Of a DNA stretch of 64,000 bases, positions 43,558 to 63,990 are shown one piece after another (position 1 is the first letter of the stretch; each line of letters begins with the position of its first letter). Made by a program: the position numbers and the translations under genes. The notes below the pieces were generated by a model. That model was not told the DNA's origin, searched no databases, and saw only the letters and a program-made list of their open reading frames with translations. The DNA comes from Trileptium ribeirensis (Eukaryota; Nematoda; Enoplea; Enoplida; Thoracostomopsidae), in the NCBI GenBank assembly GCA_030248225.1, contig JASANE010016307.1, positions 1-64,000 of the forward strand. The letters run 5' to 3'.

Positions 43558-43925
43558 TCGATTGTACCGTAAATTATATGAAATGAACATATAAAAGTTG
43601 TGATTATAACTTAAAAATAGGTAATTTGTTTATGAAACACACGATTACACCATATTATATAAAATTAGCATATAAACAGCGGGATTATAGATTAAAAATA
43701 GCTAATTTGCATATAAAACACTCGTTTACAACATAAATTATGAACCGAGCACATAAGTAACGGGATTATACATTTAAACATACGTTTGCATATAAAACGC
43801 GCAGTTACAACATAAAATTACATGAAAAGCGTATAACAGAGAGATTATCGATTAAAATAGTTAACTTGCATATTAAACGATCAATCGTAACATAAATTAT
43901 AAGAAATGATCATATAAAAAGCCGG
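43558..43925 (+). repeat. ~83-bp degenerate tandem array
   Basis: About 4.5 diverged units contain gggattatagattaaaaata, gcatataaaacac and acaacataaatta words. The array runs straight into the palindromic array that starts at about 43,925. Confidence 0.65.
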
Positions 43926-44245
43926 ATTGCAGAATAATGCGTACATCGACTGGAAAATTTATGTTACACACGATGCGTCGGCCGTACCTTGTTACAAACG
44001 ATCGATCGTCCGTATGTCAGGTTATAGACGACAAGGCCTCTATAAATTTGGTTACAGACGATTCGTCGTCCGTAACAAATATTACAAACGAGGAAGTGTT
44101 TGTAATATTTGCTATGGACGATCGGTTGTTTATAACATTTGTTATACACGCCCAATCGTCCGTAACCGAAATTACAAGCGACGAGGTGTTTGTAATATTT
44201 GTTATAAACGATCGGTCGTTTGTAACATTTTCAATCGAGCATTAT
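43926..44245. repeat. Palindromic ~30-bp monomer array, copy 1
   Basis: About ten units alternate around CGATCGATCG- or CGATCGGTCG-type cores flanked by gttataaa / tttgtaac arms, so each unit is itself near-palindromic and neighbours are mutually inverted. The period is close to 30 bp, which keeps frames open on both strands (43,927-44,298 and 43,937-44,266). The predicted peptides are low-complexity. The same monomer forms the array at 52,290-52,738. Confidence 0.8.
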
Positions 44246-45307
44246 CCTGTAAGTCTCCGCAAATAAATTCAACATTAAAATGCAAAAGAAATATTTGAAC
44301 CATTCTTGATCATACTGGAACTCTAACTTAGACATGAGTTGTAATGTTACCTTGCAAATCTTAAAATATTAGTTCAAAATGATGTTTCAACGAGCTAATC
44401 CTAGAACACAAAGGTGTTCAGATGCTCTGAAGGGTGCAGTAAACTCAATTTGAAATCTCGGAATAAACCTTTGAGCATGGAATAGCCATGCGTCCACGTT
44501 TTAGAGTTGTGTATATGTAGTTTGGTATTAATAAACACCGATGATTTGAAACAGCAAATGAGCACAACAGCGTAAAATACGTATCGTATCCTCGAGAAAC
44601 CTTTATGACTAATCTTATAATTATTTTTATGGTCACATGTTTAAATTCCCGTTAGCCAATATTAAAAATATTAGTAATTTGCAAAGTTTTTGAGCAGTTC
44701 TTTTACAAGATCCAAAATTCAAGACGAAATTAAAAGTAAAAACAGAAATTAATCTTTTGCGCTTATCTCCGGCCGCAGATTTGTAAATTTTATAACACAA
44801 CTGTCTATTGCTACGTTACTATTAATCAATTTTGGTGCAATAATTATTCCTGACACAAAAAGTTAATAAATACCCCGCCTGAATTGTGGGTTTTGTCCTG
44901 GAGATAAAGCCAACATGCATGAACAATTTTTGAATTATGTAAAGTTTTTCCCCTGGGGTGATCGTATAAAGTTTTGTTCCTAAAAGCCTAAGCTTAGGAT
45001 GGGATCAAATTTATAGATCTAAATTTTTGTCCTGTGATACTCATGTCAAGCTTCCGCCAACTGTTAGAGAGGAAAACTTGACATCATCCCAGAGGCGCAG
45101 CACGTGGGGGCCGCAGTTTCCGATAATCGGGTTAGCCGGTGCCCCTATTCACCTGCCCCTCACATTGTAGTGCCGTACGGCACCCTATATGATGGTATTT
45201 TCTTGTTATATACATATGTTGCCCAACACTGACTGTGTTCTAGACTGTACTATGATGGGTTTCGTTTTTTCGATGTTTTGAGCGTGGGCACCGTAAGCAT
45301 TCTTCTT
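44246..45307. other. Unassigned stretch
   Basis: No gene or repeat boundary was recognised. Confidence 0.45.
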
Positions 45308-46486
45308 CAAAGTAGTAACTCTATCGAGATTGCAGAGCATAATGAAAGATCGTTACACCTACGCCTTTGGCGTGCACAGCCAATCAACTCTCAATACCAT
45401 ACGTCGATATACTATATATGGATACCACACCATACCGCACAAGTTAGCGCAAAACGAACGCCGGCAATGAGTTTCCCCTGTCCGAAAATACCCACGTGAA
45501 ACTTTTTGGGCGCCCTGTTGTAGAACAAATCTTCGAATTTGGGTCGAGGAACCACGAGGGTGCCATATCTCAAACTCCATAATTCCTGAACCGGAGCCTT
45601 ACTCGAAAAACAAAAAAGATGTTGCTTCTGCGTTTTTAGACAAGATGCAATTACCAAATGGCTATATTTTGATAATTGTTCAATAAGAGGTTGCACTGAT
45701 GAACGTTGGGACTTTACGCGAAAATAATAGCAAGCACTTATAGATTTGTTAAATTTTTGAACTTTAGTCTCAAAATACATCATAGCGTTAAGACCTATAC
45801 GGTCATCATAACGAGCTCTATTTTTTAATTACTGCAACATTAAAGATCCATGTATTTTCGCCGCGGGACACGTTTTTGTTGCTTTTTACGACATTTCTTA
45901 TTTTTGTATAGTTTTATATTTTGTCATTCATCAAGCCTCATCTTTAAATTTGGCCCTTTTCGGTTAGCTTCTCACAGCCCGAACTTACTCAATTTCATGG
46001 TGGCAGGGAATCTACCAATGCCCCAAATCTTGAACCTTCCTTGTCTTTCCGAGCTAGTTCGGTATAAACAGAGCAGCTTTGAATTCGTTCAGCGCGCGGA
46101 TGTCGTGCATAACCCTAGGATTTGTAACAATGGCCACATGAGATATTCTTACGCCGAGTTGTGCTACAACCGAGATATTTATTTAGCTTCGAACTAGAAT
46201 GTGTCACTAGCATTAGCACATCCAATAAAGCTATGAGTCACCAAAAAGAACGCTTATGTTTGAGAAAAATATAGTCAACCAATTCGAAAAACAAAAAAGG
46301 GGTATCGGCATTTATCATTTTACTATGAAATAAAATCCTCCTGGGAAATATTCGCAAGTTAAGATAAACCTAATCTTACTTCCGTGAAGGGTACTGTAGT
46401 GATCACACAAATAATATTAAAAAAAAGCTAGCGAAACGTCAATTCGCTAGTTAGAATATCACCACAACCATCCAACCGTTTCAAGC

Positions 46487-46559
46487 GGGTCCATGGTGTA
46501 GTGGCTAGCACGTCTGCTGCGCACGCGGAAGGCCCGGTGTTCGATTCCCGGTGGACCCA
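46487..46559 (+). tRNA. tRNA-like gene in the 5' LTR (predicted anticodon CGC)
   Basis: This 73-nt cloverleaf has acceptor GGGTCCA/TGGACCC (7 perfect pairs), D-arm GTGT/GCAC with AGTGGCTA loop, and anticodon stem TCTGC/GCGGA with loop TGCGCAC. The T-arm has TTCGATT loop. A-box TGGTGTAGTGG and B-box TGTTCGATTCC are close to consensus, so Pol III transcription is plausible. Deviations are G instead of U at position 33 and one bulged base in the T-stem 5' strand. The D-arm and anticodon-stem region resembles tRNA-Val, and a G3:U70 alanine identity pair is absent. Probably a tRNA-derived promoter rather than a translating tRNA. Confidence 0.6.
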
Positions 46560-46609
46560 TTCTTTAGCTTGAGCGGTATTTAACAAAAATAGCTAACATA
46601 GCTTATAGT

Positions 46610-46627
46610 TGGTGAGCCCGACGTGAT
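46610..46627 (+). promoter_or_regulatory. Primer-binding site for tRNA-Trp
   Basis: TGGTGAGCCCGACGTGAT is complementary to the 3' end of eukaryotic tRNA-Trp (ATCACGTCGGGGTCA plus CCA) with one mismatch. It lies two bases after the 5' LTR. tRNA-Trp priming is known for the CsRn1/Kabuki-type Ty3/gypsy elements, so such an element probably supplies the enzymes. Confidence 0.75.
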
Positions 46628-46792
46628 CCCTGTGCAGATCAGTCTATGCGAAGAGTAATGAGCTCAAAAATGCCTGCTCCGCAGCTGGACGCGGGGGTTG
46701 TGTAGTGATCACACAAATAATATTAAAAAAAAGCTAGCGAAACGTCAATTCGCTAGTTAGAATATCACCACAACCATCCAACCGTTTCAAGC

Positions 46793-46865
46793 GGGTCCAT
46801 GGTGTAGTGGCTAGCACGTCTGCTGCGCACGCGGAAGGCCCGGTGTTCGATTCCCGGTGGACCCA
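46793..46865 (+). tRNA. tRNA-like gene in the 3' LTR (identical copy)
   Basis: Base-for-base the same as the 46,487 copy, 306 bp downstream, including the position-33 G and T-stem bulge. Both copies keep the A and B boxes. Confidence 0.6.
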
Positions 46866-47147
46866 TTCTTTAGCTTGAGCGGTATTTAACAAAAATAGCT
46901 AACATAGCTTATAGGTACTAAACTGGGGTAAAAAAACTCTCAATTTGGCCTCTGACCCCGGAACCAAACCTGAAGCCAAAAAAGCTCGGAGATGTACACG
47001 ACAAATTCGAATGAGGATGCCACTTCGAAAGAGCCCAAGATCGTTAAAATGGGTTTAGTCGTCCCCGAGTCATGGCCTATCACACACACTGACGGAATTC
47101 AAAAGCTTTCACCCTTGCAAAACACAATCTCGACTATGGTAGACTAC

Positions 47148-48149: not shown

Positions 48150-49240
48150 TAGAACTCTAGAACCAGAGCCTTAATCGAAAAACAAAAAGTGGCATCGGAA
48201 TTTATCATTCTACTATGAAATAAAACCAAGCACATCAAAAAAATTCGAAAGTTAAATTAAAAATAACTTTGCTTCCGTGAAGGGTACTAAACTGAAAAAA
48301 CTTTTATTTTGCTCTCTGACCCGAACCTTGGGAGAGTCATGCACCCGTACCCATGGGTCACAGAGCAAAACTAGCACCGGCAATGAGTTTCCCATACCCG
48401 AAAACCCCCAAATGAAACTTTTCAGCCGCCCAGGACGTCAGAAAAAAATTTTCGAATGTTGGATCGAGGAATCACTGGGGCACCATAACTCAGACTCCAT
48501 AACTCTAGAACCGGAGCCTTAATCGAAAAACAAAAAAGACCCATCGCATTTATCATTTTACTATGAAAAAACACCAAGCAAAGAAAAAATCGAAAGTCAA
48601 GGTAAAATAATCTTGCTTCCGTGAAGGGTACTAAAATGAGGTAAAAAACATTTTTGCTCTCTGACCCCGAACCTTGGAGGCGCCATACCACCGTACCCAC
48701 GGAACCATGGCCACAGAGCAAATCCAGCACGGTCAATGAGTTTCCCATGACGGAAAACCCCCTGGTTAAAATTATCAGCCGCCCAAGACGTCAGAACAAA
48801 TTTTTAAATTTTGGGGTCGAGGAACCATTGGGGTGCGATACCGCCGCACCTCAAACCCCATAAATCTAGAACCCGAGCCTTAATCGAAAAACAAAAGAGA
48901 CATCGGCTTTTATCATTTTACTATAAAATAAAACCAACCAGAGAAAAAAATCGAAAGTTAAGATAAAATAACTTTGCTTCTGTGAAGGGCACTAAAATGG
49001 GGTAAAAAAGCGCAAAAAACCCACATTTTGACCCTAACCCCGGAACCAGACTCTAAATCAACAAACGCTCGGAGATTTAAACAGTAAACCGACTACGCCG
49101 ATTCGAATGAGCCCAAGATCGTGGAAATCGGTTTAGCCGTTCCCGAGTTATGGCCTATCACACGCACAAATACACACAAATGGAATTGAAAAGATTTCAC
49201 CCCTGCAACACACAGTCTCCGCTCCGTTTCAGTACGTTCT
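48150..49240 (+). mobile_element. Repeat family A, copy 2 (tandem ~350-bp units)
   Basis: The gagccttaatcgaaaaacaa landmark follows aacc(a/g/c)gag at 48,162, 48,509 and 48,870, giving periods of about 347 and 361 bp. Each unit also has cttccgtgaagggta/gca and gagtttcccat segments. The copy ends like copy 1 (gagcccaagatcgtggaaat, ggcctatcacacgcac, then acacacagtctccg). It appears 5'-truncated and has no coding capacity. Confidence 0.7.
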
Positions 49241-50734
49241 GATTAATATTGATATTTGATATAAAAATATAAAATAATGTTATTTATATATAAATATAAA
49301 AAATATTTATATATATAAAATATTGTTTATTAATATGATTATGCATATTTATATTTACATCTATTGCTAACAGTTTTAATTTTTATAGGCCATCGCCATT
49401 ATCGCTAAAAAGAATGTAAAAACGATAACGGAACTAATATTTTTATAGTATTGTTTATATCCGGTGAGTACTTAAACGTTTGTAATGTAAACAAAAAGCA
49501 AAGAACATTCGAGCTGAAGGTTGCTGCCCGTTCGGACAATTGAGCTTATTTCGAGTATCGGACTTTAGAATCATAAATAACTCAAGTTTATGGTTCCAGA
49601 CGTGAAAACTATTAGTTGAACGAAATGCTTTTCTCCGAAGTGTAGCGCAGTACTTCAACTGTAAACGTGTTTGTTTTAATAGATAGTTTGTCAAGATGAG
49701 ATTAATTTGCTACTGTTTCTTTATAAGGCACTGCTCTAAGTTTTATTGAGCCTAATTCATGGGTACAAACTTTAGTGTTGGAAGATATTTCAATATGATA
49801 TTTCGGATTTCAGAAATAAATATATATATTCGTCAACAAAGAAGTTCCAAGATGCTCGCTTACAGTTGGGCTTACAATCATAGCTTTGATTGGCTAAACC
49901 ACAAACAGTAAATAGTTCAAGAGCAACAAGCAAATCATTAATTGGGTATCCTTAATCTGAGTTAACATCAGCCGCAGTTCATAGTCCGTTTTGGCTAGTG
50001 AAATGATTTCTGCTCTTTATTTTATTTCAAACGTCTCAACGTTGATGAAGTCAAGAGTACACGTCCCCAGTGAACTAGTGAAAAATATGCAAGACTATAA
50101 ATTAAGTTATAATAATGAAATTTGCAACAACTTTAGCCCAATCTAGGTGGTTTTGATACTTTATTAGCTAGCTTATATGCTGTAAAGGTAATTTCAATTG
50201 TATCCAGTACCATGAAATATGGTTACTACTTAACACTTCACTTGCATGAAAACTATACAATACGGCTTTTATATAACCTATTTCGCAAGTGAAATATCAA
50301 GAACTTATACTATTCTGCAGTTCATCATAAGTACGATTTGAAATTAATTTAGGCAGAACTATTTCGAAAGCGGCGGATTAAAAACGACCTCTCTCTGAGT
50401 AAGCAAATTGAAATACACTCGTTTTAAGCGGAAATAACTAAAAGACGATCGTATTTGACTTCACAGATCAGAACGACTTTTAATTTTATCCATGTTAGTG
50501 GGCACGCATTGCGGTAATACCCGCAATAAGAGATTTGAGTTTTAAAAAATAATTCGCCATTTTTCTTTTGTGGACGGAATCACATATTGGAAAATGTGTG
50601 CTTGCAGCTGCTCGAAACATCTGTCATATTCACTAGTAGTATTAACATCACCATAATTTCTTCTGCCGTTCTGTATGTAAGCATACGTGTTACAACAATC
50701 TTATCTTAATGAATTGTAGGTTGTATAATATAAC
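49241..50734. other. Unassigned AT-rich stretch
   Basis: Low-complexity TATAAA runs lie at 49,255-49,340. A minus frame at 49,455-49,694 has no recognisable domain. Confidence 0.45.
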
Positions 50735-52190
50735 ATAGCCTACAAGGAAATATGGCAGGATGTAAATTTGGAATTTGAGGCTTATCCGGAATACCAGAGC
50801 ATATTGAGTTAAAGACAGGGTGTAGATTTAGAATTAGAGGTTTAACCGGAATAAAAGACCAGATCGACGTAAGGACAAGGTCTAAATTTAGAACGTGATG
50901 TTTAACCGGAATACCAGAGCAGACCGTGTTAAAGACAACGTATACAGTCGGAATTTGAGGCATAACCGAAACACCAAAACTGATCGAGTTCAGGGCAAGG
51001 CGTAGATTTAGAATATGAGGTTTAACCGGGATACCAGAGCAGATCGGGTTAAGGGATTCGGAATTTGAGGTTTAGCCGGAATACCAGAGCAGGTCCAGTT
51101 AAGGATAAGGTATAGATTTAGAATTCGAGGCTTAACCGGAATACCAGAATAGATTGAGTTAAGGACAAAACGTAGATTCAGAATTTGAGGCTTAACCGAA
51201 ACACCAGAACTAATCAAGGTCAGGACAAGGTGTAGGTTTAGAATATGAGGTTTAACCGGAATAAAAGAGCAGATCGAGTTCAGGACAAGGTGTAGATTTA
51301 GAATTTGTAACTTAACAGGAATACCAGAGCAGATCGGGTTAAGGGATTCGGAATTTGAGGCTTAACCGGAACACCAGAACTAATCAAAGTCAGGACAAGG
51401 TGTAGGTTTAGAATTTGCAATTTAACTGGAATAAAAGAGCAGATCCAGTTCAGGACAAGGTGTAGATTTAGAATTTGAAATTTAAGCGGAATACCAGAGC
51501 AGATCAAGTTAAGCACAATGTGTAGATCGGGAATTTGGGGCTTAACCGGAATACCAGAACTAATCAAGGTCAGAGCAAGGTGCAGGTTTAGGATTTGAGG
51601 TATAACTGGAATACCAAAGCAGATCGAATTAAAGACATGGTGCCGATTCAGAATTTGAGGTTTAACCGGAATACCAGAGCAGATCGGGTAAAGGGATTCG
51701 GAATTTGAGGCTTAACCGCAACACCAGAACTAATCAAGGTCAGGACAAGGTGTAGCTTTAGAATTTGCAGTTTAACTGGAATACCAGAGCAGATCGAATT
51801 AAAGACAAGGTGTCGATTTAGAATTTGAAATTTAACCGGAATACCAGAACAGACCGAGTTAAGGACAAGGTGTAGATTCGGAATTTGAGACTTAAACGAA
51901 ACACGAGAACTGATCAAGTTCAGGACAAGGTGTAGATTTAGAATTTGAGGTTTAATCGGAATACCAGAGCAGATCGAGTTAACGACAAGGTGCAGATTCG
52001 GAATTTGAGGCTTAACCGAAACGAGTTAAGGACAACGTGTAGATTTGGAATTTGGGGCTTAACCGGAATGCCGGAACTGATCGAGTTCAGGACAAGGTAT
52101 AGATTTAGAATTTGAGGTTTAACCGGAATACCAGAGCAGATCGGGTTAAGGACAAGGTGTAGATTCGCAAATCAAGGCTTATACTAACCA
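50735..52190 (+). repeat. 60-bp minisatellite, ~24 units
   Basis: The unit contains gaatttgaggcttaaccgga, ataccagagcagatcgagtt, and aaggacaaggtgtagattta. Some units are shortened. Because the period is exactly 20 codons, a minus-strand frame repeats a SGIPVKPQILNLHLVLN-like peptide over long runs (51,298-51,567; 51,648-51,917). Stops break it, and no ATG-led gene context exists. Confidence 0.9.
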
Positions 52191-52289
52191 GCGGAGCGGA
52201 TCGCTGTCAATATTTTCAATAGGGCAGCATCTATCTCACTTCTTGTGATAAAGTATTTACATTTGCTGTGTGATCTTTGTTGATATATA

Positions 52290-52738
52290 TGCCAAATACG
52301 GACAAATCGTCGCTTGTAATTTTTGTTACGGACGATCGGTCGTTTATAATATTTGTTATAAACGATCGATTGTCCGAAACAAATGTTACAAACACCTCGT
52401 CGTTTATAATATTTGTTATGGACGATCGATCATTTATAACTTTTGTTATAAACAATCGATTGTCTATAAGCATATATTACAAACACCTCGTCGCTTGTAA
52501 TTTTTGTTACGGACGATCGGTCGTTTATAACATTTGTTATAAACGATCAATCGTCCGTAACAAATATTACAAACACCGCATCGCTTGTAATACTTATTAC
52601 GGACGATCGATCGTTTATAACTTTTGTTATAAACAATCGATCGTCCATAAACAAATATTACAAACACCTCGTCGCTTGTAATTTCTGTTACGGACGATCG
52701 GTCGTCTGTAACAAATGTTATAAACAACCGATCGTCCA
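52290..52738. repeat. Palindromic ~30-bp monomer array, copy 2
   Basis: About fifteen units of the same monomer as 43,926-44,245 (acggacgatcggtcg, tttataacatttgttataaa, acgatcgatcgtccgtaac, with acacctcgtcgcttgtaat spacers every two to three units). It abuts the inner end of family A copy 3 at 52,745. Neighbouring units can pair with each other. Confidence 0.82.
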
Positions 52739-52744
52739 TATGAA

Positions 52745-53676
52745 CCCGGGTGAACGTTTCCGAGAGTTTTTTGATTTGGGATCTGGTTCCGGGGTTAGGG
52801 GTCATAATCTGGGTTTTTCACCCCATTTTACTACCCTTCGCAAAAGCTCGGTTATTTTATCTTAACCTTCGAATTTTTTCTCTGGTTGAATTTATTTCAT
52901 AGGAACAAGATAAATGTCGATGCCTGTTTTTCGATTAAGGCTCCGGTTCCAGAGTTATGGGGTTTGAGGCATGGTGCCCCAATGGTTTTTCGTCCCAAAA
53001 TTCGAAAATTTTTTGTTACCGTCCTGGGCTGCTGAAAAGTTTCACTTGAGGATTTTGGGGCATGCGAAACTCATTGCCTGTGCTGGTTTTAATCTGTGAC
53101 CCATCGTTCCATGTGTACGGGCGTATGGCGCCCCCAAGGTTCGGGGTCGGAGAGCTAAATAAAGGCTTTTTACCCTATTTTAATACCCTCCACGGAAGCA
53201 AGATTATTTTTATTTTAACTTTGGTTATTTTTTTCTCTGCTTGGTTTTATTTCATAGTAAAATGACAAATGCCGATGCCTCTTTTTTGTTTTGGATTATG
53301 GCTCTGGTTCTACAATTATGGGATTTGATGTTTGGGGGTTTTCGGGCATGGGAAACTCATTGCCTGTGTTGAGTTTGATCTGCGACCCATGGTTACATGG
53401 GTACGGGGGTATGTCGCCGTCATGGTTCATCGCCCCAAAATTCCTAATTTTACTGATTACGTCCTGGGAGGCTGATAGCTTGCACTTGCGGGTTTTGGGG
53501 CACGGGAAACTTATTGCTGGTGTTAGTGTTGTCCTAACTTGTGCGGCATAGTGTGATATCCATATATAGCGTATCGACGTATGCTATCGAGAGCTGATTG
53601 GCTGTGCACGCAAAAGGCGTTGGTGTACTTATGCCTTGATAAGTCCTGCAATCTCGATAGAGTTACTAGTAACTTT
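52745..53676 (-). mobile_element. Repeat family A, copy 3 (inverted)
   Basis: Read on the minus strand it starts agtaactctatcgagattgc, as copy 1 does. It continues through tgcacagccaatcagctctc, gagtttcccatgcccgaaaa, the cttccgtggagggta landmark and gaaccggagccttaatcg. It ends at the palindromic array with a ccggaaccagatcccaaatc segment. The terminal agreement with copy 1 fixes the outer end of the family. Confidence 0.7.
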
Positions 53677-58037: not shown

Positions 58038-58328
58038 TCAATTGCAATTTATACATTTTACAATATCACAGTTATATTCAACAAAAATACAAGGATATAT
58101 CAATGACAGTTTATACAGTGAATGTTCAAATGATTGTCCTTTTTTAATTTCTTTCTTCACAAATTCCGCAGCTGTGAGCACCGCTGTACGTTTTCGTATT
58201 AGCGCCATCAGCGTTTCTTCTTCCTGCGAACGTCCATCTATGAAGTCACCACTAGCATCACACTGGCGATAAAATTCATCCACCTTTGACTGCCAATACG
58301 CAATCTCATCTTGAAGATAGTCATCCAT
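58038..58328 (-). CDS. Small helical acidic protein of the capsid cluster
   Basis: 96 residues from the ATG at 58,328. An upstream in-frame ATG at 58,388 would give 116, but the later start overlaps the preceding gene by only 8 bases, a compact virus-like junction. The N-terminal half is acidic and helix-prone (MDDYLQDEIAYWQSKVDEFY, then GRSQEEETLMALIRKRTAVL); the end contains CDIVKCINC. No family was recognised. It is the last minus-strand ORF before the poly(A) signal and hammerhead. Confidence 0.55.
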   Translation of the reverse strand: MDDYLQDEIAYWQSKVDEFYRQCDASGDFIDGRSQEEETLMALIRKRTAVLTAAEFVKKEIKKGQSFEHSLYKLSLIYPCIFVEYNCDIVKCINCN

Positions 58329-58800
58329 CGTAAGCTTGAAGAATCTTGATTCCAACGTATCGCTGACGAAGTACTTTATCCAAATCATACGTTGCTAGAT
58401 GCTTCATAAATCTAGCTCCCATGTAGCAACTACTAAATGTATATCCACGATAGGTACCAACAGCTCGAGCAAGTATCAATCCGTAATGGTATGATATTGA
58501 TAGGTTGTTGAATATATGTTCAAAGACGTCAAAGAGATATACCATTTTCGAGCTCCATTTAAGGCTTTGCGGTGGTTTGAGATGAACGTTGAAATGTAGT
58601 TTGGATAAAGATTTATTTATCCAAATTATGTCATAGCCTTTTGCAGGATTCCACTTTTCACTTGACCCATTTGTCCAATCATCATAGCACAGAGTTTTGT
58701 TTTCTTGCTTTGACTGGTTGTTATTTAAGCATAATAAAACAGTTTCAACAATAGTAGCTATAAATAGTGCACAACATAATAAAATTACGCGTTTATCCAT
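58321..58800 (-). CDS. Single-pass membrane protein of the capsid cluster
   Basis: 159 residues from the ATG at 58,800. The first segment, MDKRVILLCCALFIATIVET, is a hydrophobic signal-anchor. It is followed by an N-glycosylation-rich stretch (NKT, NGS, NKS) and a globular C-terminal part. The frame is continuous with the capsid frame upstream, with no stop between, so the capsid stop may have been lost or the two may be translated as a fusion. Function unknown. Confidence 0.55.
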   Translation of the reverse strand: MDKRVILLCCALFIATIVETVLLCLNNNQSKQENKTLCYDDWTNGSSEKWNPAKGYDIIWINKSLSKLHFNVHLKPPQSLKWSSKMVYLFDVFEHIFNNLSISYHYGLILARAVGTYRGYTFSSCYMGARFMKHLATYDLDKVLRQRYVGIKILQAYDG

Positions 58801-60114
58801 GGTTATTATACAATGGGATTCATTCCTTTTAAGAAATTTTATTCCAATACACTTCCCTTTTTCGTTAATATGTAGTTCAGAGGTAAACTCTCCCATTGCA
58901 AATATCACAATTGCATGTTTCAACTCCTCTACAAAATCTATTGATAGTCTTGCCTGTCCATCTGATGGGTTTGAAATATAATTACAATCACTACTGTGAT
59001 CTTTACTTAAATCGATACAAAATATTTGATATCCTGCACCGTATCTAAACCCAACTTCAGTTAGTCCCAAATTTTCATTTCTACCATTTAACGCGTATAA
59101 TGTATTGTAAAACAGTCTCATATTATTACCAGCTTTACACGGTAGGGGGACATTAAAAGGGTATCTATCATCATTCATAAATAATGTAAAGCTATTCATA
59201 TCAGGTAGATTTAACATAAACAAGTTTGATTTTGCTGCACCTGTGTACGCTTCCTGTGTTATTCCCCAAATGTATATTCTTCGAGGTAACACACCATCAA
59301 AAATTGTCCAATCTACGTTTTGTACACCTTTATTTACAGACAATGTATATAATTTGTATCTTATCGCGGGAAGTATAACTGCCCCAATTCTATTTTAAAT
59401 TTCAAGAGCTTCTATTGTTAATCGTGCTTTAGGTATATAGCGTTTGAAATCATTGATACGAATTTGAAATTTATTAGCTGGTTCATGCAGCAATATTAGA
59501 GATGGTGTACTTCGCGTAAATTTAAATTCTAACCTTGTTTTTGGTGGTAGGTATTTGGGAGATAAATATGCATCGATAATTAATGGAAAATAAAGCTCAC
59601 ACTTTTGAGACACCGCAGTCAACGCGTTTCTATAAATGGAACCTTCATTATTCTCAAGATCATCAAACATGTATGTCTGATCAGGTTTGTAAAGACATCC
59701 TGCTTAATATTGTTTTCTTTGTTCCTCACTCATATGTAACATATACAATATGTATGTCATCCAGAGGTAGTGTTTTTGGCTGTAGGTTATCGGTTCTCCT
59801 TTTATTTTCATCTCAACTGATGAAAACAGTCCATACCCGAACATATTACATGGTGCAAATTTAAGAGTTGTATCTTTAATCTCCTTACCATCACCTTTCA
59901 GTATTTGAAATTCAATATATACAAATATTTCAGATAAATCAATCAAATCAAATGCACTTTCACCAATTTTACAACGAAACGAGTCATCTGTATCAGTGCT
60001 CGGTAAAGTTGTTTCACAAGCGACTTCAATCATTTGCGTTGATATGATTGAGTCTTGAACAGGGTATTTATCACCCTGCCAATTAAGTTTTTCGACGCCG
60101 CATACGTTTGACAT
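58801..60114 (-). pseudogene. Polinton/adintovirus-like major capsid protein (F54H12.2-like)
   Basis: One frame from the ATG at 60,114 runs about 438 codons, close to the family's usual length. Recognisable blocks in order are IDLSEIFVYIEFQILKGDG, then APCNMFGYGLFSSVEMKIKG near residues 50-115. KCELYFPLIIDAYLSPKYLP follows mid-protein, then GVLPRRIYIWGITQEAYTGA and GYQIFCIDLSKD in the C-terminal third. This is the double-jelly-roll hexon-type capsid seen in Polinton/Maverick elements and adintoviruses, and in proteins annotated F54H12.2-like. Breaks are TAA at 59,704-59,706 and TAA at 59,395-59,397, both in frame, with no frameshift. The normal C-terminal stop is not seen; the frame runs into the membrane-protein ORF. 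Confidence 0.82.
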
Positions 60115-60220
60115 TTTTCTTTTTCTTTGCTGGTTTACGATGCTTTTTAAGACTTTTCTTCTTCTTAACGATTGGAATAGCTTTTAGAAGCTTTCTCGAA
60201 TTAAAACATAGAGGTAGCAT
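60083..60220 (-). CDS. 45-residue highly basic protein, core/pX-like
   Basis: An ATG at 60,220 and TAA at 60,083-60,085 enclose an intact 45-codon frame too short for usual ORF cut-offs. It starts MLPLCFNSRKLLKAIPIV; the remainder is mostly Lys/Arg, with KKKK runs and a final RRRKT. It overlaps the capsid start by 32 bases in another frame and sits between penton- and hexon-like genes. Size, charge and position suggest a DNA-condensing core protein like adenovirus pX/mu or the basic proteins of adintoviruses. That is inference; no sequence family was recognised. Confidence 0.55.
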   Translation of the reverse strand: MLPLCFNSRKLLKAIPIVKKKKSLKKHRKPAKKKKNVKRMRRRKT

Positions 60221-60263
60221 TTTTAAACTTAGATTTATTAAATTTATTCATCCTTTTTAAGAA

Positions 60264-60830
60264 CTAAACCATAACCTCAATATCATCTTTGCGTTTGGAA
60301 AAACTCAACAGTTTGAAATTCTGAATCAAGCACATCAAATCGGAAAACTTTAACATGCAAATGTTAAACTCTAGGTTCATTGTATTTTTCACATTAGATG
60401 AAATTACGTGTAGTAGTGGTTTATATCTTCCGTTTACTATTCGTTCTTTCACAAAAGAACTCATTATAAACGTGGGTTTGTTATGTTGCATGTTGACACA
60501 TTTGTTTCCAACATGTTTACCGTTTTTCAGGTGTAAAGCGATGAATCCAAATAATTGTTGTATTTCCGGAAATATCTTAATTTCTGCCTTACCTAACATG
60601 TATACACTAACACGATCACCGATGGGGTCAACTGTAAACTCAATGTCTTGACTAAATGTGTTTAGGTAAGATAACAAATTGTTGATATTGTAGTAGCCTT
60701 TATCAACAGTAAATCGTTTCCAAGATTTATTTGTGAAATATTCAACAATACCACCCTCAATATTTTTGTATTTGGTGGGAAGTTGAACATCCAGTACTTT
60801 AACTTTTGTATCGCAAAATCCTGTCGGAAA
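60264..60830 (-). pseudogene. Polinton-like minor capsid (penton-type) protein, 5'-truncated
   Basis: The frame is open from a TAG at 60,831-60,833 to the stop at 60,264, about 188 codons, without an ATG near its start. Recognisable blocks are GGIVEYFTNKSWKRFTVDKG near the N-terminus, QLFGFIALHL in the middle, then SSFVKERIVNGRYKPLLHVI and KRKDDIEV at the end. This matches the layout of Polinton single-jelly-roll penton proteins, with their LGF, P-L-L-R/H-V and terminal acidic-basic strand motifs. The N-terminus is missing or lies in another exon. It directly precedes the basic ORF and hexon-like gene. Confidence 0.6.
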
Positions 60831-61797: not shown

Positions 61798-63990
61798 CTA
61801 CTATTGTTCCATAGCCTGGTATGAATTGTCTATAGTATCCTGTTAAGCCAAGGAAACTCTTGAGTTACGTCACCGTCTTCAGTTTCGAGAAATTCTGTAT
61901 CTTCTCGAACTTTCCAGGGTCCGTTGATATACCTTTGCGTGATACAATGTATCCCAAGAACGGAATCTGTTCTTTGAGAAATTCGCGCTTCGACCTTTTT
62001 GCCTTGAGATTCGCTTCACGAAGACGTCGTAGTATTTGACTAATGTCGTATAAGTGGCCCCAAAAAAGATAATGAAGTCATCGAGGTAGCATAAGCATGA
62101 TTCTATTAAGCCGCCCGCTAGAATTAACTGCATCATTCTTTGGAATGTTACAGGAGTATTCGTCAACCCAAAAGGCATGACGTTGAATTCGAACAATCCT
62201 TCATGACAGGTGAACGCTGTCTTTTCTTTGTCTTGTTCGTTCATTGGTACTTGCCAATATTCTGACTTGAGGTCCCGGGATGAGAAGCACTTCGTACCAC
62301 GTAACGCATCCAACATTTTATCAATTCTTAGTAATGGCGGGCTTTGTGATTGAGTTGGGCATTCTGTAATTGGCACAGAATCTTTTTGATCTATTTTTCT
62401 TGTTGGTCAATATTATTGATGATGCTCAGGAACTGTATGATCTTCTTATCACTCCATGATCCAGCGTTTCTTGAACCTGTTTTGCTCTATTTGTTTCGGT
62501 CTACGTACGGTGGGCGTCGCAATGGGTGTGCTGATATGGTTTGGATATAATGTTCCACCTGTGTGTTAATGCCAATATCGAAGTCTGAATTTGAAAAAAC
62601 ATCTTGGTAATTGTGGAGTACGGTTACTAGATACGCTTTCCTTTCTTCGTCAGTGACCGACTTCTCTAAATCAATTTCGGCCAGATATTCGATACTGTTT
62701 ATGTGCTCGGTTTGGCGTATTATCAGTTTTAAAATTGCTTGATATTTAATCGTCGTTGCTCCTTCTTTATTCTTGTATTTCTGTATCCACCATTGATATC
62801 ATCTATGGGTTCTTTATTTGGATATCGCCGTTCCAGGATTTGATTATCGGCTGATCGATTGCTTTTTGGGAGTTTTCGTCGTCGACCACCGTTCTTATGA
62901 TTGCCTCTTCTACTTTTCGTACCAGTAATTGATCTTCAATTATTTCTATTTCGACTTTGTTAGGTTGTACACTGGTATCATGATGTTGTTCTCTTTCACT
63001 TTGGCGATGTTGTTTGGTACTGGTAATCTGTTACTGATTTTCGTCAGAGGTTCCACTATTACTGTGTCACCTTCTTTTGTTCCCTCCGGGATCTTTTCTT
63101 CGATAAATTTTGTCGACCAGGGAGGGATCACTTATTTGTATGAACACTTGCAGATTTCGATATGGTTCTCACCTTCTCTGCTGATCGATCCCATTTCGTT
63201 GAACTTCCAACTGTGAGGTATCGGTTGACCATCCATTTTGATTCTCAGTTGTTGATAATCTATCACCAGTTCAAACGCTGCCAGAAAGTCGTGTCCATAT
63301 ATCGCGATCTTTGGAAAGTTTTGGATTATGATGAATCAGACTTTCCGTACTGTCTTTTCCAAATGAACTCGTACAAAGAAATAGCCCATTGCTCTTTCTG
63401 TTAAATCTCCGTTTAATCCCACTGCACACAATGTGTTTTTGTTGAGCGGTAGATGTTTGAAATGTTTTTCATATTGTTCTTCGCTGATGATCGTTATTTG
63501 TGATCCCGTATCGACCAAAGCTCGCAGCTTCTTGTTCCCTTCGGGGTACGTATCAATGTAGTACCTTGACAGGACTGTCGGATCACTGCACGGTTCGTGT
63601 TCTTTCGCTTCATTAATTTGGTTCACTTCTACGAACGTTTCTTTCTTCTCATGGGCTGATATATCTTAGCATTCTTTGTTGCCGATTCGGTTGCAGTTGT
63701 ATTGATTGTTGTGGTATTTGCACCGGGTACATCGTCTGCTACATTAGTTGCTGCGTTCCCATTTGTGCATAGTATGGTTGTTGATAATTCGTGTCAATCT
63801 GCGTTGCATCATTGGTATCGGCATCGATCATGGTTGCGCGATTGTTTGGTGTTGTGGTTGACGTACTTGTATCGATTGATTGTTCCACCATTTCGGACGC
63901 CATTGGATTTGTGGTCTTTGTATCCTCGGTCGTCACATTTGTTGCCTAGTATTCGGTCTCGTTTGATTAGAAGTAGGTTGACTCGTTCGG
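61798..63990 (-). pseudogene. Ty3/gypsy gag-protease-RT pseudogene
   Basis: From right to left, a gag C-terminal tail lies at 63,739-63,936 (Thr/Asn-rich, ending QQPYYAQMGTQQLM). A Cys/His cluster CTRCKYHNNQYNCNRIG lies at 63,660-63,740. The aspartic protease at 63,336-63,626 has ALVDTGSQITIISEEQYEKH, with the catalytic D-T-G. A linker lies at 62,946-63,131 (PEGTKEGDTVIVEPLTK). RT at 61,879-62,376 has SRDLKSEYWQVPMNEQDKEK, FNVMPFGLTNTPVTFQRMM and the active-site YLDD. Frameshifts occur in the RT N-terminal part and after YLDD. The 5' LTR would lie beyond the window; the RNase H part continues at 61,150-61,500. Confidence 0.85.

What the first reader, a model, noticed from the sequence alone, without database searches (positions are those of the whole stretch)
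46395..46913. TRIM retrotransposon whose LTRs each carry a tRNA-like Pol III gene
Seen: identical 213-bp LTRs, a GGTAC duplication at both junctions, a primer site complementary to tRNA-Trp with one mismatch, a G-rich tract before the 3' LTR, a 93-bp interior, and in each LTR a 73-nt cloverleaf with good A and B boxes. Known: plant Cassandra TRIMs carry 5S rRNA promoters in their LTRs. An animal TRIM carrying a tRNA-type promoter would be a parallel solution, with Pol III transcription of a retroelement that borrows Ty3/gypsy (CsRn1-like) enzymes. A Pol III transcript starting inside the LTR would not span it fully, so how full-length RNA is made is an open question.
Basis: partly seen in the sequence, partly recalled or inferred. 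Interest (0 to 1): 0.88.

Follow-up and report, generated by a model that had tools for sequence, protein, structure and literature searches.

The report
Helenus-type mini-retrotransposon with tRNA-like repeats
A 519-base mobile element with a tRNA-like sequence in each of its two end repeats is real and present in many copies in this genome, but it belongs to a kind of element (Helenus) described in 2024, so it adds detail to a known theme and is not a new one.

Summary
Window 46395-46913 is a 519-bp element: identical 213-bp LTRs, 93-bp interior, tRNA-like cores at 46487-46559 and 46793-46865, GGTAC on both sides. The genome holds many copies (680 candidates, 40 scored). Exact 5-bp duplications flank 13 of 28 complete units; unoccupied paralogous sites lie in the same window. 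Only-copy and assembly-duplication readings are refuted.

It fits Helenus, TRIMs with tRNA-derived LTRs (Kojima 2024, PMC10886601), known from animals, fungi and a plant; the idea is not new.

Beyond the parts of that paper I read: (1) 5-bp duplications predominate, against 4 bp stated for animals; (2) a second family here (151-bp LTRs, mostly 4-bp duplications) has a homologous interior and primer site but unrelated U5; (3) the first family largely lacks the Pol III stop TTTT, the second has TTTT at its LTR end; (4) half-elements break at the primer-site start.

Pol III use, partner, host tRNA-Trp and species were not established. Tests of cloverleaf covariation, cloverleaf folding and A/B-box constraint gave no support.

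The parts
46390..46394 (.). target-site duplication GGTAC, 5' copy
   Evidence: unoccupied paralogous sites carry it, or a close variant, once
46395..46607 (+). 5' LTR, 213 bp, TG...TA
   Evidence: identical to 46701-46913
46426..46452 (+). U3 hairpin (10-bp stem, 7-nt loop) in the 5' LTR
   Evidence: z-score -6.3 for 46417-46470
46487..46559 (+). tRNA-like sequence with putative internal Pol III promoter
   Evidence: ARAGORN; Rfam RF00005 42 bits
46494..46504 (+). putative A box TGGTGTAGTGG
   Evidence: sequence; motif recalled
46538..46548 (+). putative B box, first base departing from the usual motif
   Evidence: sequence; motif recalled
46608..46700 (+). interior, 93 bp, non-coding
   Evidence: 40 scored genome matches of 171 candidates
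46610..46627 (+). primer-binding site, tRNA-Trp type, 17 of 18 to a recalled tRNA-Trp
46693..46697 (+). short polypurine tract GGGGG
46701..46913 (+). 3' LTR, identical to the 5' LTR
46732..46758 (+). U3 hairpin in the 3' LTR
   Evidence: identical copy of 46426-46452
46793..46865 (+). tRNA-like sequence, 3' LTR copy
46914..46918 (.). target-site duplication GGTAC, 3' copy

Best explanation
It is a recent insertion of a non-autonomous LTR retrotransposon of the Helenus kind (a TRIM whose LTRs carry a tRNA-derived sequence). Shown: two LTRs, interior with primer site and short G tract, target duplication, many dispersed copies, tandem arrays, unoccupied paralogous sites, half-elements that break at the primer-site start, and a sister family with the same plan and a homologous interior. 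[quoted passage not shown] a tRNA-Trp primes reverse transcription; the two R regions allow strand transfer; proteins of an autonomous, probably Ty3/gypsy, element do the copying and integration. The tRNA-like part works as a promoter, not as a working tRNA.
For: Copies: 50 rows from 40 scored of 680 candidates. Target duplications: of 28 complete units (one of them a solo LTR), 5-bp exact in 13, 5-bp with one mismatch in 5, 4-bp exact in 4 (two of these share flanks), none in 6; one more 5-bp case, L031. Empty sites in the window's own repeat and in a 49-bp satellite. LTR-LTR divergence runs from 0% (window) to 14.5%. TTTT absent in 28 of 30 aligned stretches, in 68 of 76 LTRs and in 44 of 44 interiors. 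Sites that differ between lineages (second base at 20% or more): 13 of 62 in U3 outside the hairpin, 0 of 26 in the hairpin, 2 of 73 in the tRNA-like part, 2 of 48 in U5; p=0.0008 for tRNA against U3. Sister family with homologous interior. Of 13 further loci, 8 are interior-LTR halves starting at interior base 1-3.
Against: No RNA data. No partner found. Cloverleaf pairs show no covariation: 467 of 500 shuffles pair at least as well. The tRNA-like RNA is not unusually stable (z -1.4 majority form, -1.1 window copy; -0.3 second family). ARAGORN finds a tRNA in only 25 of 40 first-family loci and Rfam in 5 of 10. A and B boxes are not less mutated than the rest among copies (permutation p=0.46). 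The tRNA-versus-U3 contrast used cut-offs chosen after looking and weakens as the cut-off rises: p=0.02 at 0.25, 0.08 at 0.3; against all other LTR sites it is 0.03, 0.06, 0.22, 0.50 at 0.15, 0.2, 0.25, 0.3. TTTT absence is partly shared descent; dinucleotide shuffles of single complete copies give zero TTTT in 7-29% of cases. G-to-T changes that would make TTTT are not rarer than others (3 of 152 against 46 of 3318). Six of 28 units have no recognisable duplication.
Confidence: 0.82

Rival explanations
1. The TRIM is transcribed by Pol II from U3 (AT-rich stretch at about 46409-46425) and the tRNA-like part is a passenger, for example a SINE caught in an LTR, kept by hitch-hiking.
For: No covariation, no unusual fold of the tRNA-like part and no extra constraint on A/B boxes among copies; U3 has an AT-rich stretch of TATA type (sequence).
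Against: Both families keep a tRNA-like core while U5 is unrelated and U3 is the most variable part of the first family; TTTT is scarce downstream of the start in the first family.
Confidence: 0.15
2. An assembly duplication or segmental duplication of a single tRNA locus, not a transposon.
For: The two LTRs in the window are identical.
Against: Dispersed copies with different duplications, empty sites, interior shared by the copies.
Confidence: 0.01
3. A tRNA-derived SINE moved by a LINE; the direct repeats are tandem SINE copies.
For: tRNA-like core and small size; tandem arrays occur.
Against: 4-5-bp duplications and LTR-interior-LTR order with primer site and G tract, no A-rich tail at the 3' end of the copies shown.
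Confidence: 0.02

Closest known systems
Helenus (TRIMs with a tRNA-derived sequence in the LTRs; Kojima 2024, PMC10886601)
   Same: Two short LTRs each with a tRNA-like sequence, PBS, PPT, no coding; anticodon call (Ala-CGC) at odds with the nearest recalled isotypes (Val, then Gln and Gly); tandem arrays, which the paper reports for LTR-11_DR; length within 311-1263 bp; tRNA-Trp is among the primers the paper gives for wasp families.
   Different: Predominantly 5-bp duplications here, while the paper states 4 bp for animal Helenus; two families in one genome share an interior but not U5. Whether these families are in that paper's Table S1 or in Repbase could not be checked (supplements not open, species unnamed).
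Cassandra (plant TRIM with 5S rRNA promoter; PMC10853983, abstract start and passages seen)
   Same: Pol III-type promoter inside the LTRs of a non-coding TRIM.
   Different: 5S rRNA-derived, plants, methionine primer site.
Ajax (5S-bearing TRIM of nemerteans; PMC10886601)
   Same: Same overall plan.
   Different: 5S-derived, tRNA-Leu primer.
PbTRIM of the red harvester ant (PMC3532108, passages seen) and ta-TRIM of tapeworms (PMC4558846, passages seen)
   Same: Animal TRIMs with primer site, short element, solo LTRs; for ta-TRIM, 4-bp duplications in one genus and 5-bp in another were read as a change of mobilising partner.
   Different: The passages seen name no tRNA-like sequence in their LTRs; leucine tRNA primers.

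Membership tests
TRIM | Two short LTRs around a short non-coding interior, target duplication | tested here: met
TRIM | PBS just inside the 5' LTR and PPT before the 3' LTR | tested here: met
   PBS 46610-46627 (yardstick tRNA recalled); PPT is only GGGGG followed by TTG, weak
TRIM | Dispersed mobile family | tested here: met
Helenus | tRNA-derived sequence in each LTR | tested here: met
   (both LTRs); among 40 first-family loci ARAGORN finds at least one tRNA in 25
Helenus | Conserved A and B boxes across families | tested here: inconclusive
   Both boxes present; no extra constraint among copies; the tRNA-like part is alignable between the two families, 0 of 1000 shuffles reach the score
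Helenus | 4-bp duplications in animals (as published) | tested here: not met
   This family is mainly 5 bp; the sister family is mainly 4 bp: 11 of 21 units, against 3 with 5 bp and 7 with none. The paper's definition rests on the tRNA-like LTR, not on the duplication length.
Helenus | Pol III transcription | not testable with these tools
   no RNA or ChIP data; the paper also leaves it unproven
Helenus of animals | Dependence on a Gypsy element with matching PBS | not tested
   the PBS pattern search in the own genome did not complete (and repeats up)

The most novel reading that the evidence does not exclude
In this genome one tRNA-Trp-primed interior module circulates under at least two different tRNA-bearing LTR modules that integrate with different duplication lengths (5 versus 4 bp) and handle Pol III termination differently: one largely lacks TTTT, the other places TTTT at the last bases of the LTR. 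LTR modules would be exchangeable cassettes, with a change of integrase partner, and the half-elements would be reverse transcripts caught before the second strand transfer.
Probability: 0.35. Interest if true: 0.6.

Novelty: new member of a known kind. Interest (0 to 1): 0.4.

Why it matters
It gives independent support that tRNA-bearing TRIMs are real transposing families. Two families with a homologous interior but different LTRs in one genome make a testable system for how a Pol III-type promoter can serve an LTR retroelement: which terminator strategy is used, where the RNA ends, and what decides 4- or 5-bp duplications. It also warns that tRNA gene counts in such genomes can be inflated by LTR copies, as the Helenus paper shows for rust fungi.

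Tried and rejected
Assembly duplication and only-copy: rejected. SINE: rejected on anatomy. A working tRNA-Ala: not supported; the anticodon alone says Ala, by score the sequence is nearest to recalled tRNA-Val, with Gln and Gly close and equal to Val in identical bases, 52 each, and copies with other anticodons occur. Cloverleaf by covariation or by folding energy: no support. A/B-box constraint among copies: no support. TTTT avoidance as a rule of the whole group: rejected, because the second family carries TTTT at its LTR end (TTTT in 43 of 48 LTRs). Within the first family, C-to-T changes that would make TTTT are rarer (3 of 226 cells against 163 of 3325), A-to-T somewhat (2 of 372 against 48 of 4148), G-to-T not (3 of 152 against 46 of 3318); copies are related, so this is suggestive only. 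Phage records (one stretch) and viral contigs (exact 73-mer) gave nothing; a prokaryote scan with the exact primer site gave 6 bacterial or archaeal hits of no evident relevance. The primer site, up to 3 mismatches, has no second place in the window; in L007-L054 the two further hits tagged OTHER (L033, L047) are diverged copies of the element. Partner search, host tRNA-Trp and species identification: not achieved.

Full report
What is there. The 519-bp element at 46395-46913 has identical 213-bp LTRs, a 93-bp interior, a tRNA-Trp-type primer site two bases downstream of the 5' LTR, a short GGGGG tract before the 3' LTR, and GGTAC on both sides. ARAGORN reads a tRNA in each LTR; Rfam scores it 42 bits and lists it once. 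The label Ala comes from the anticodon CGC; by score the sequence is nearest to tRNA-Val as I recall it, with Gln and Gly close.

It is a mobile family. The window's own genome (687 Mb, 20,229 unnamed contigs) gave 50 rows from 40 scored of 680 first-look candidates. From 48 fetched stretches (L007-L054), after dropping 8 that repeat others (L019, L025, L041, L050-L054), I obtained 42 chains, of which 28 were complete, one of them a solo LTR: 5-bp duplication exact in 13, with one mismatch in 5, 4-bp in 4 (L027 and L047 share flanks), none in 6. L031, counted as truncated there, has a 5-bp one. LTR pairs differ by 0% in the window and up to 14.5% elsewhere, so insertions were spread over time and the window copy is young. 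Tandem LTR-interior arrays occur in at least six loci (L012, L024, L032, L035, L043, L048); two whole arrays (L012, L048) have a 5-bp duplication around them.

Empty sites. The window element sits in a repeat that also occurs, without the element and with GGTAC (48150-48360) or a close variant (48860-49120, 53100-53320) once, at other places of the same window. L008 sits in a 49-bp satellite whose neighbouring units are unoccupied. L029 is in the window's repeat type too.

Evidence on promoter and structure. Within this family the sites that differ between lineages fall mainly in U3 (13 of 62 sites outside the hairpin), less in the tRNA-like part (2 of 73: position 19, and position 57, which is a degenerate site of the B box as recalled), U5 (2 of 48) and the U3 hairpin (0 of 26); p=0.0008 for tRNA against U3 at a 0.2 cut-off, 0.02 and 0.08 at 0.25 and 0.3, and 0.06 against all other sites at 0.2 (cut-offs chosen after looking). 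Against a maintained cloverleaf: paired positions show no covariation, the tRNA-like RNA is not unusually stable and its best fold is not a cloverleaf, ARAGORN finds a tRNA in 25 of 40 first-family loci and Rfam in 5 of 10, and A/B boxes are mutated like the rest among copies. That would be expected if most differences arose after insertion, but it is no support. The U3 hairpin is strong in the window (z -6.3 for a 54-nt stretch); the whole majority U3 of the first family gives z -2.5 and that of the second family, which has a hairpin at the same place, z -1.7. Its role is unknown; it would lie between the polypurine tract and R in the RNA.

TTTT. The first family lacks TTTT in 28 of 30 aligned stretches (some overlap, and one of the two exceptions, L036, is truncated and was read beyond its end), in 68 of 76 LTRs and 44 of 44 interiors. 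Pol III could therefore read from the 5' LTR through the element; the first TTTT beyond it lies 12-758 bp downstream in these 30.

A second family. A tRNA-like sequence beside one copy (L049) led to 117 rows from 40 scored of 954 candidates, many of them 242-244 bp apart. Twenty fetched stretches give a family with 151-bp LTRs (TG...CA), a 90-91-bp interior, TGC anticodon in all 20 loci and the same primer site. Of 21 units (two of them single LTRs), 11 have exact 4-bp, 3 exact 5-bp and 7 no duplication. Against the first family (14 with 5 bp, 3 independent with 4 bp) Fisher p=0.0011. Interiors beyond the primer site are homologous (0 of 1000 shuffles reach the score), the tRNA-like parts align too (0 of 1000), U3 marginally (48 of 1000), U5 not (969 of 1000). 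Its LTR ends in CTTTTCA, with TTTT in 43 of 48 LTRs and in none of 29 interiors; there a full-length Pol III RNA would have to read through the first TTTT and could stop at the second.

Half-elements. Of 13 loci found by their interior, 8 (L057, L058, L059, L062-L065, L067) have interior and 3' LTR (in L058 and L062 incomplete) but no 5' LTR, with the break at interior base 1-3, where the primer site begins; one (L066) lacks the 3' LTR; one (L056) is cut by the contig end; three (L055, L060, L061) have both LTRs at least in part. Among the earlier loci L015 and L023 (minus strand) look alike, L035 the other way round. By eye no duplication directly flanks the halves; a script that looked for a 5-bp match followed by TG further upstream gave scattered candidates in 3 of 8. 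This is what captured reverse transcripts that missed the second strand transfer would look like; it is inference from position.

Known or new. A paper search found Helenus (PMC10886601; abstract, Methods, Results, Discussion, legends and tables read, Introduction and supplements not): tRNA-bearing TRIMs in animals, fungi and one plant, Pol III promoter proposed and unproven, animal families said to give 4-bp duplications and to depend on Gypsy elements, tRNA-Trp among the primers of wasp families. A search for helenus, trim and retrotransposon listed only this paper, and TRIMp3 found no other relevant paper; the library holds open-licence papers only. The present element meets the defining feature and is filed as Helenus; the 5-bp duplication departs from the stated animal pattern. 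For tapeworm TRIMs a 4/5-bp difference was read as a change of partner (PMC4558846, passages seen).

What is not settled. Species (animal, probably arthropod from the look of transposon proteins, recalled only), partner element, host tRNA-Trp, and any RNA evidence. In both families the primer site has A or G where a recalled tRNA-Trp calls for C (A 26 and G 16 in one, A 24 and G 4 in the other, three unread), which may reflect the host's own tRNA-Trp.

Noticed in passing
L049:897-967 (-), L067 5' flank, L068-L087: A second, very numerous tRNA-bearing TRIM family (151-bp LTRs, about 90-bp interior, one fetched array with seven LTRs) in the same genome.
   Followed up: yes
L057, L058, L059, L062, L063, L064, L065, L067: Interior-LTR half-elements whose 5' break falls at the start of the primer site; the sequence upstream of L059 reads like a gypsy RNase H (by eye, recalled motif, not run through a tool).
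   Followed up: partly
L036:1307-1708: Two LTRs in inverted orientation overlapping by some bases, next to an interior.
   Followed up: no
window 61879-62376 (-): Reverse transcriptase fragment (Pfam RVT_1, E 5.8e-20), gypsy-like by eye; further ORFs to about 63665 look like the same element (by eye).
   Followed up: no
window 58321-60830 (-): Several ORFs that resemble capsid-like proteins of endogenous viral or Polinton-like elements (recalled; the one ORF scanned, 58321-59343, had no Pfam match).
   Followed up: no
window 43910-44298, 50706-52025, 52274-52865: Repetitive ORFs on both strands that look like readings of minisatellites (by eye).
   Followed up: no
window 48150-49120, 52750-53285: A repeat of about 150-200 bp in several copies, one more of which, at 46300-47010, holds the element.
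   Followed up: partly
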